A stretch of 64,000 nucleotides of DNA from Bacteroidota bacterium (GTDB taxonomy: Bacteria; Bacteroidota; Bacteroidia; 2-12-FULL-35-15). How positions within the stretch are numbered: position 1 is the stretch's first letter; each line of letters begins with the position of its first letter. Positions 24,963 through 25,235 of the stretch are shown piece by piece. The notes below the pieces were generated by a model. The model saw only the letters and a list, made by a program, of their open reading frames with translations. It was not told where the DNA came from and did no database searches. The position numbers and the translations under genes were made by a program. The stretch spans positions 248,001 through 312,000 of the forward strand of contig CANIQT010000002.1 of the NCBI GenBank assembly GCA_947469885.1. The letters run 5' to 3'.

Positions 24963-25235
24963 GTTGATAAAAAAGGAAATTCAGATAATAAAAAAGCCTT
25001 ATCAGTTAATAAAAAAGGAAACTTTGTTATTCAAAAAGGGTATTTAGTTAAATAAAAAGGTTTCTCCGTTAATGAAAAAGGGTTTTCAGATGCTAAAAAA
25101 GGGTGCTTTTTTAATGAAAAAGGGAGTTCAGTTAATGAAAAAGGGAATTCATTTACTAAAAAAGGGAGTTCAGTTGAGTAAAAAGGAGCACTTTTGGCAT
25201 AACGGAGGGTGCTTTTTGAGTAAATAACGACAAAT
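24963..25235. repeat. Array of about 13 degenerate 21-bp tandem units, consensus gttaatgaaaaagggagttca
   Basis: Units aligned by eye at exact 21-bp steps from 24963, each with an A5-6 tract at the same phase; last two units weak. Confidence 0.92.

What the first reader, a model, noticed from the sequence alone, without database searches (positions are those of the whole stretch)
24963..25235. Non-coding 21-bp degenerate tandem array with phased A-tracts
About 13 units keep an exact 21-bp spacing while their sequence diverges (consensus gttaatgaaaaagggagttca). Each of the clear units has an A5-6 tract at the same phase. Established DNA mechanics: A-tracts repeated every ~21 bp (two helical turns) give intrinsic curvature. 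Stops in both strands' frames in part of the array argue against a coding role. It sits about 160 bp upstream of an uncharacterised minus-strand gene (24101-24799). Inference: a curvature element, architectural-protein binding array or unusual upstream regulatory element. I know of no named element of this form.
Basis: partly seen in the sequence, partly recalled or inferred. Interest (0 to 1): 0.8.

Follow-up and report, generated by a model that had tools for sequence, protein, structure and literature searches.

The report
Helix-phased repeats upstream of FN3-type genes
The 21-base repeat array is real and is one of roughly 36 per million bases in this bacterium, all with different sequences but a unit of two DNA helix turns; such arrays tend to sit just upstream of one kind of uncharacterised gene, which suggests a regulatory element built on spacing rather than sequence.

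Summary
The array at 24963-25235 is confirmed: 13 units, exact 21-bp register, A5-6 at one phase in 11 of 13, no open frame, no codon-level constraint. It is not a singleton. In 1.24 Mb of this genome I found about 45 non-coding 21-bp arrays (36 per Mb) with unrelated units, and 0-1 at 20 or 22 bp. A second lies at 44087-44390. Arrays lie within 900 bp upstream of 46 of 68 genes of three profile-defined families (200-330 aa, helical N-half, often an FN3 or CarboxypepD_reg C-half), against 2 of 78 downstream and 9% of background genes. The focal neighbour 24101-24799 belongs to one family; its ortholog in a relative has an array at the same place. A Bacteroidota-type promoter lies between array and gene. 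In relatives some arrays have 20.0-20.75-bp units and none near these genes exceeds 21, so the constraint is two helical turns, not seven codons. Curvature is strong in the focal array but not in the class. Best reading: a helically phased, sequence-tolerant DNA element, probably a private protein-binding array of the downstream gene. Binder and effect are unknown, many arrays are orphans, and a minisatellite with two-turn mutational periodicity is not excluded.

The parts
24963..25184 (-). Core of the 21-bp array, about 10.5 units; consensus + strand GTTAATAAAAAAGGGAATTCA with an invariant AAAAAG core; sense for the downstream gene is the minus strand
25185..25235 (-). Two degenerate terminal units in register; together with the adjoining flank (25182-25240) the block best conserved between this genome and relative L051/G043
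24865..24869 (-). -33-like TTTTG of a Bacteroidota-type promoter, 19 bp from the -7-like box
24838..24845 (-). -7-like TAAATTTG (TANNTTTG); lies between array and gene, so the array is upstream of the promoter
24101..24799 (-). Family A gene, 232 aa, all-helical (AF2 pLDDT 92) with a repeated helix pattern; no Pfam family, no PDB or viral fold match; 232 homologs at E<=1e-3, some with a CarboxypepD_reg C-terminal domain
44087..44390 (+). Second non-coding 21-bp array (consensus GTGTCTATGTCAAATGAAATG), about 13 units, no A-tracts, low predicted curvature
44084..44112 (.). Left arm of an inverted repeat bracketing the second array
44380..44408 (.). Right arm of that inverted repeat
45927..46535 (+). 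Family B gene, 202 aa: helical N-half plus FN3 fold (AF2 pLDDT 94); about 1.5 kb from the second array

Best explanation
The array is a DNA-level cis element whose essential feature is spacing of two B-DNA turns per unit (20-21 bp), not its sequence. Shown: it lies upstream of a promoter-like sequence of an uncharacterised helical-protein gene, and such arrays recur upstream of paralogs and homologs of several such families, with unit sequences that turn over quickly while the unit length stays within 20.0-21.0 bp. Inferred: copies of a DNA-binding protein sit on one face of the helix at two-turn steps, cooperatively and with low sequence demand, and set expression of the downstream gene as a private operator or enhancer (in the manner of iterons or parC). 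The binder may be the gene's own product or a shared chromosomal protein. Homogenisation between units (slippage or unequal exchange) keeps each array uniform while its sequence drifts.
For: Array within 900 bp upstream of 46/68 family genes against 2/78 downstream (p=1e-18) and 55/614 background genes (p=9e-27). Second batch: 9/22 up, 3/30 down (p=0.017). Orthologous array and gene in L051/G043; other-family homologs with arrays, L024, L025, L195, L206. Own genome: 63 arrays at 21-multiples, 1 at 20, 0 at 22. Unit length near family genes: 21.0 x52, 20.0-20.75 x10, none between 21 and 23; 41-, 62-, 80- and 83-bp periods exclude a codon explanation. No codon signal, no period-3 in column conservation. 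Sampled genomes without the families (G009, G010, G011, G007, G049, G050, G042) had no such arrays; G004, G043, G027 did. Close paralogs (89% and 82% protein identity) share flanks and array length but have diverged units.
Against: Strictly only 9 of 43 arrays in the sampled own genome have a family A/B/C gene within 1.7 kb; the rest lie beside other or unclassified genes, and 7 orphans sit between convergent genes, as background gaps do. Family B genes in G051, G040 and G055 had no upstream 21-bp array in the complete loci seen (0 of 8). G044 has 16-18 family B genes but 0 arrays in 120 kb of random DNA. Conserved columns within units cluster only weakly, so no clear binding core. A -7 box was recognised in only 7 of 40 loci, mostly family A (expected 2.8). 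No expression or binding data.
Confidence: 0.45

Rival explanations
1. A lineage-specific class of minisatellite: some replication, recombination or repair process in these cells makes and homogenises tandem duplications two helical turns long; the arrays have no function and sit in AT-rich intergenic DNA, travelling with an expanding gene family.
For: Arrays outnumber family genes and many are orphans; unit sequences unrelated between loci and fast-drifting; weak conservation cores; two pairs of loci share units (L014/L021, L030/L147).
Against: 46/68 upstream against 2/78 downstream of family genes and orthologous retention across species are not expected of a neutral process; sampled genomes without the families lack arrays.
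Confidence: 0.3
2. Intrinsic-curvature element: A-tracts phased with the helix bend the DNA upstream of the promoter.
For: The focal array has A5-6 in 11/13 units and a predicted 17.8 deg/turn against 6.8 +/- 1.8 for shuffles.
Against: Across 43 arrays curvature equals that of column-shuffled sequence of the same period (mean z 0.01); the second array in the window is nearly straight, 3.7 deg/turn.
Confidence: 0.1
3. MITE-like mobile element: an array bracketed by inverted repeats, as in BrickBuilt, which lands upstream of genes.
For: 9 of 69 arrays have inverted-repeat ends above the 99% level of mismatched pairs (0.7 expected), e.g. L224 25/25 bp, L221, the window's second array.
Against: Most arrays, the focal one included, lack inverted repeats; array sequences differ between loci instead of being copies; no target-site analysis was done.
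Confidence: 0.1
4. A coding repeat: 7-residue repeats of a small or upstream open reading frame.
For: Many arrays have one stop-free frame; two 324-aa proteins (L010:791-1765, L153:7565-8539) do contain 21-bp coding repeats.
Against: Six frames closed in the focal and second arrays; pN/pS no better than column shuffles for the non-coding arrays while coding controls give p 0.016-0.066; 20-, 41-, 62- and 83-bp periods in relatives.
Confidence: 0.05

Closest known systems
Plasmid iterons and partition centromeres (R6K 22-bp iterons upstream of pir, parC of ParR; from general knowledge)
   Same: Direct repeats at helical-turn spacing upstream of a gene; bound cooperatively and autoregulatory in the known cases
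   Different: Known iterons have a conserved unit for one cognate protein; here every locus has its own unit, the sites are chromosomal and tens per Mb, and the gene product has no known DNA-binding fold
BrickBuilt MITE of Porphyromonas gingivalis (PMC4596501)
   Same: Bacteroidota, intergenic tandem minisatellite in multiple copies; a minority here also have inverted-repeat ends
   Different: 23-bp unit of one sequence, 19 copies per genome, a mobile element with promoter activity; ours are 20-21 bp, sequence-diverse, and linked to gene families
TAACTGA heptamer direct repeats (PMC4679880)
   Same: Abundant intergenic direct repeats upstream of genes, also in some Bacteroidota
   Different: One fixed 7-mer, mostly within several nucleotides of start codons, proposed translational role; ours have no 7-bp subperiod
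Prokaryotic satellites surveyed by Subirana and Messeguer (PMC6749651)
   Same: Tandem repeats in intergenic DNA
   Different: Most species have very few (medians 0-3 per Mb), and many are coding segments; this genome has about 36 non-coding 21-bp arrays per Mb
Phased A-tract curved DNA upstream of bacterial promoters (general knowledge)
   Same: Focal array has helically phased A-tracts
   Different: Not a property of the class

Membership tests
Iteron / parC-type operator array | Direct repeats at whole helical turns upstream of a gene | tested here: met
Iteron / parC-type operator array | Conserved unit shared by cognate systems | tested here: not met
   Units unrelated between paralogs, apart from a few family-A orthologs sharing a CCTTTTT core
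Iteron / parC-type operator array | Product binds the repeats | not testable with these tools
   No known DNA-binding fold in families A or B
BrickBuilt-type MITE | Terminal inverted repeats | tested here: not met
   9 of 69 arrays only, not the focal one
BrickBuilt-type MITE | 23-bp unit, near-identical copies across the genome | tested here: not met
   Period 21, different sequences
Curved-DNA element | Curvature beyond that of equally periodic sequence | tested here: not met
   Class mean z 0.01; met only for the focal array
Coding heptad repeat | Open frame with purifying selection on codons | tested here: not met
Known structured RNA | Match to an Rfam family | tested here: not met
   only a sub-threshold chance match outside the array

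The most novel reading that the evidence does not exclude
A new kind of chromosomal cis element in Bacteroidota in which the conserved information is the helical pitch itself: arrays of arbitrary sequence, fixed at two helical turns per unit and renewed by concerted evolution, serve as private control regions for an expanded family of helical/FN3 proteins, with genomes differing in the exact pitch (21.0 against 20.0-20.75 bp).
Probability: 0.3. Interest if true: 0.9.

Novelty: new variant of a known kind. Interest (0 to 1): 0.7.

Why it matters
A regulatory or architectural element that keeps its spacing but not its sequence cannot be found by motif search, so a whole class may have been overlooked. 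It gives a natural test of what proteins read in DNA besides sequence, a possible read-out of helical pitch in living cells, and a handle on a large uncharacterised FN3-type protein family in environmental Bacteroidota.

Tried and rejected
Coding repeat. Curvature as the common property. Sub-periods of 7 or 10.5 bp inside the unit (none). Array as a tandem promoter: TANNTTTG inside arrays is no commoner than chance, 1 against 3.5 expected. Sequence-specific pairing of array and protein: unit similarity barely follows protein similarity, so not supported. Universal inverted-repeat ends. Known protein families: no Pfam, NCBIfam or PADLOC assignment of family A beyond weak hits; family B is FN3 plus an unnamed helical half. 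Fold search of family A against PDB and viral models: nothing below E 0.001. Literature searches for 21-bp intergenic arrays in Bacteroidota returned nothing closer than the papers cited; only open-access papers are held.

Full report
Observation. The array at 24963-25235 is real. Tandem Repeats Finder gives period 21, 10.5 copies and no indels for 24963-25184. Lag-21/42/63 identity (0.64/0.66/0.61) exceeds the best lag of every one of 1000 shuffles, maximum 0.57. Eleven of 13 units carry A5-6 at the same phase; the last two (25194-25235) keep the register only. No frame is open.

It is one of many. An ungapped scan for every period from 10 to 99 found about 45 arrays with period 21 or a multiple at score 45 or more, outside long ORFs, or 36 per Mb. 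With the threshold lowered, 63 arrays have multiples of 21, against 1, 0, 6 and 5 for multiples of 20, 22, 18 and 24. A Markov sequence of 400 kb gave none. Unit sequences differ from array to array; a BLAST search with the focal array found only itself and a 28-bp stretch elsewhere. The second array in the window, 44087-44390, has no A-tracts.

Not coding. A column-shuffle test of synonymous against non-synonymous change gave p-values spread evenly over 0-1 for the non-coding arrays, while coding controls gave 0.016-0.066. Column conservation shows no three-base periodicity. No sub-period exists inside the unit.

Association with a gene class. Many arrays lie 90-250 bp upstream of genes for proteins of 200-330 aa. 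Profiles for three families (A = 24101-24799 and homologs; B = helical + FN3; C) were searched in this genome and relatives. Where at least 600 bp of upstream sequence exists, 46 of 68 genes have an array within 900 bp upstream, and 2 of 78 have one downstream (Fisher p=1e-18). The profiles were built from genes first noticed beside arrays, so a few of the 68 are not independent of the hypothesis; most are new loci found by the profile alone. The background for genes of 200 aa or more in this genome is 55/614 upstream and 41/614 downstream. In a second batch from seven genomes the figures are 9/22 and 3/30. Several loci without an array begin within a few hundred bases of the gene because the contig ends there; those were left out of the 68. 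In the sampled genome, however, only 9 of 43 arrays have a strict A/B/C gene within 1.7 kb. Others sit beside similar but unclassified proteins (L026, L032, L035, L042, L150, L157), and some beside ordinary genes or between convergent genes.

Comparative evidence. L051/G043 carries the ortholog of 24101-24799 (69% identity) and an array at the same place, 156 bp upstream. The two aligned arrays share the CCTTTTT core and register, and the block 25182-25240 is the best conserved. A promoter of Bacteroidota form (TTTTG-19-TAAATTTG, minus strand 24869-24838; the form itself is from general knowledge) lies between array and gene, so the array is upstream of the promoter. In another family of the class (G027), two homologs of 47% and 19% identity also have arrays. 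Paralogs L222/L241 (89% protein identity) and L221/L228 (82%) have homologous flanks and leaders on both sides of arrays of similar length whose units have diverged: units evolve faster than their surroundings. Sampled genomes of the genus without the families showed no such arrays (G007, G009, G010, G011, G042, G049, G050), while G004, G043 and G027 did. G044 is an exception: families present, none in 120 kb of random DNA, though its family genes do have arrays.

The key observation on mechanism. With all periods allowed, unit lengths upstream of family genes are 21.0 (52), 20.75 (1), 20.67 (3), 20.5 (3) and 20.0 (3), with none between 21 and 23; the only other values were 14 (2) and 18 (1). 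Periods of 41, 62, 80 and 83 bp are not multiples of three but are close to whole numbers of helical turns; for the 41-bp array of L324 the two halves are not visibly alike, so there the unit may be four turns. If only unit exchange maintained the arrays, longer units should occur as often as shorter ones (10 against 0, p=0.002; loci are not fully independent, L179/L180 in particular). One orphan array (L030) shows 64 bp, i.e. 21.33. Two turns of B-DNA is the simplest common constraint.

Curvature. By a dinucleotide wedge model the focal array is strongly curved (17.8 deg/turn against 6.8 +/- 1.8), but the class is not more curved than any sequence of the same period, and the second array is nearly straight. 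The A-tracts are therefore a feature of this member.

Proteins. Family A is all-helical with a repeated helix pattern (AF2 pLDDT 92) and resembles nothing in PDB or the viral library. Family B has a helical half and an FN3 fold (pLDDT 94). No signal peptide is evident in the focal protein by inspection. Function is unknown.

Verdict. Shown: a genome-wide class of sequence-diverse arrays with two-turn units, enriched upstream of particular gene families. Inferred: phased protein binding and regulation. Not excluded: a neutral minisatellite process with two-turn periodicity. The counts depend on score thresholds chosen here, on draft assemblies, and on a sample of about 30% of this genome.

Noticed in passing
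window 29676-36443 (-): 2255-aa TPR/SPOR-like protein with long coding 7-residue repeats (QPTTNN type); its 21-bp periodicity at DNA level is coding and unrelated to the non-coding arrays.
   Followed up: partly
L010:791-1765 and L153:7565-8539: Two paralogous 324-aa proteins have a 21/42-bp repeat array inside the coding sequence, followed by a domain that looks like a winged helix-turn-helix.
   Followed up: partly
L324:598-1243, L294, L299, L306 (genome G044): Arrays of family B genes in G044 have 20-20.75-bp average units, shorter than the 21.0 of other genomes; a genome-specific pitch would be worth measuring.
   Followed up: partly
L014:13152-13366 and L021:17860-17961; L030:4289-4557 and L147:4737-4966: Pairs of arrays at different loci share the same or similar unit, so occasional dispersal of arrays occurs.
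   Followed up: no
L221, L227, L230 leaders: Family C leaders carry a small hairpin (e.g. GAGTTTAAGAAACTC) next to the start codon and some share a GGCTAATGACCAA motif.
   Followed up: no
contig starts of L179, L180, L182, L184, L220, L229, L237: Contigs of several genomes begin 50-350 bp upstream of family genes, as if assembly broke in the arrays.
   Followed up: partly
window 45344-45404: 8-bp tandem repeat GATGTGCC between two tiny ORFs near the second array.
   Followed up: no
window 9416-10459: Nearly four copies of a 267-bp repeat, probably a repeated coding domain.
   Followed up: no
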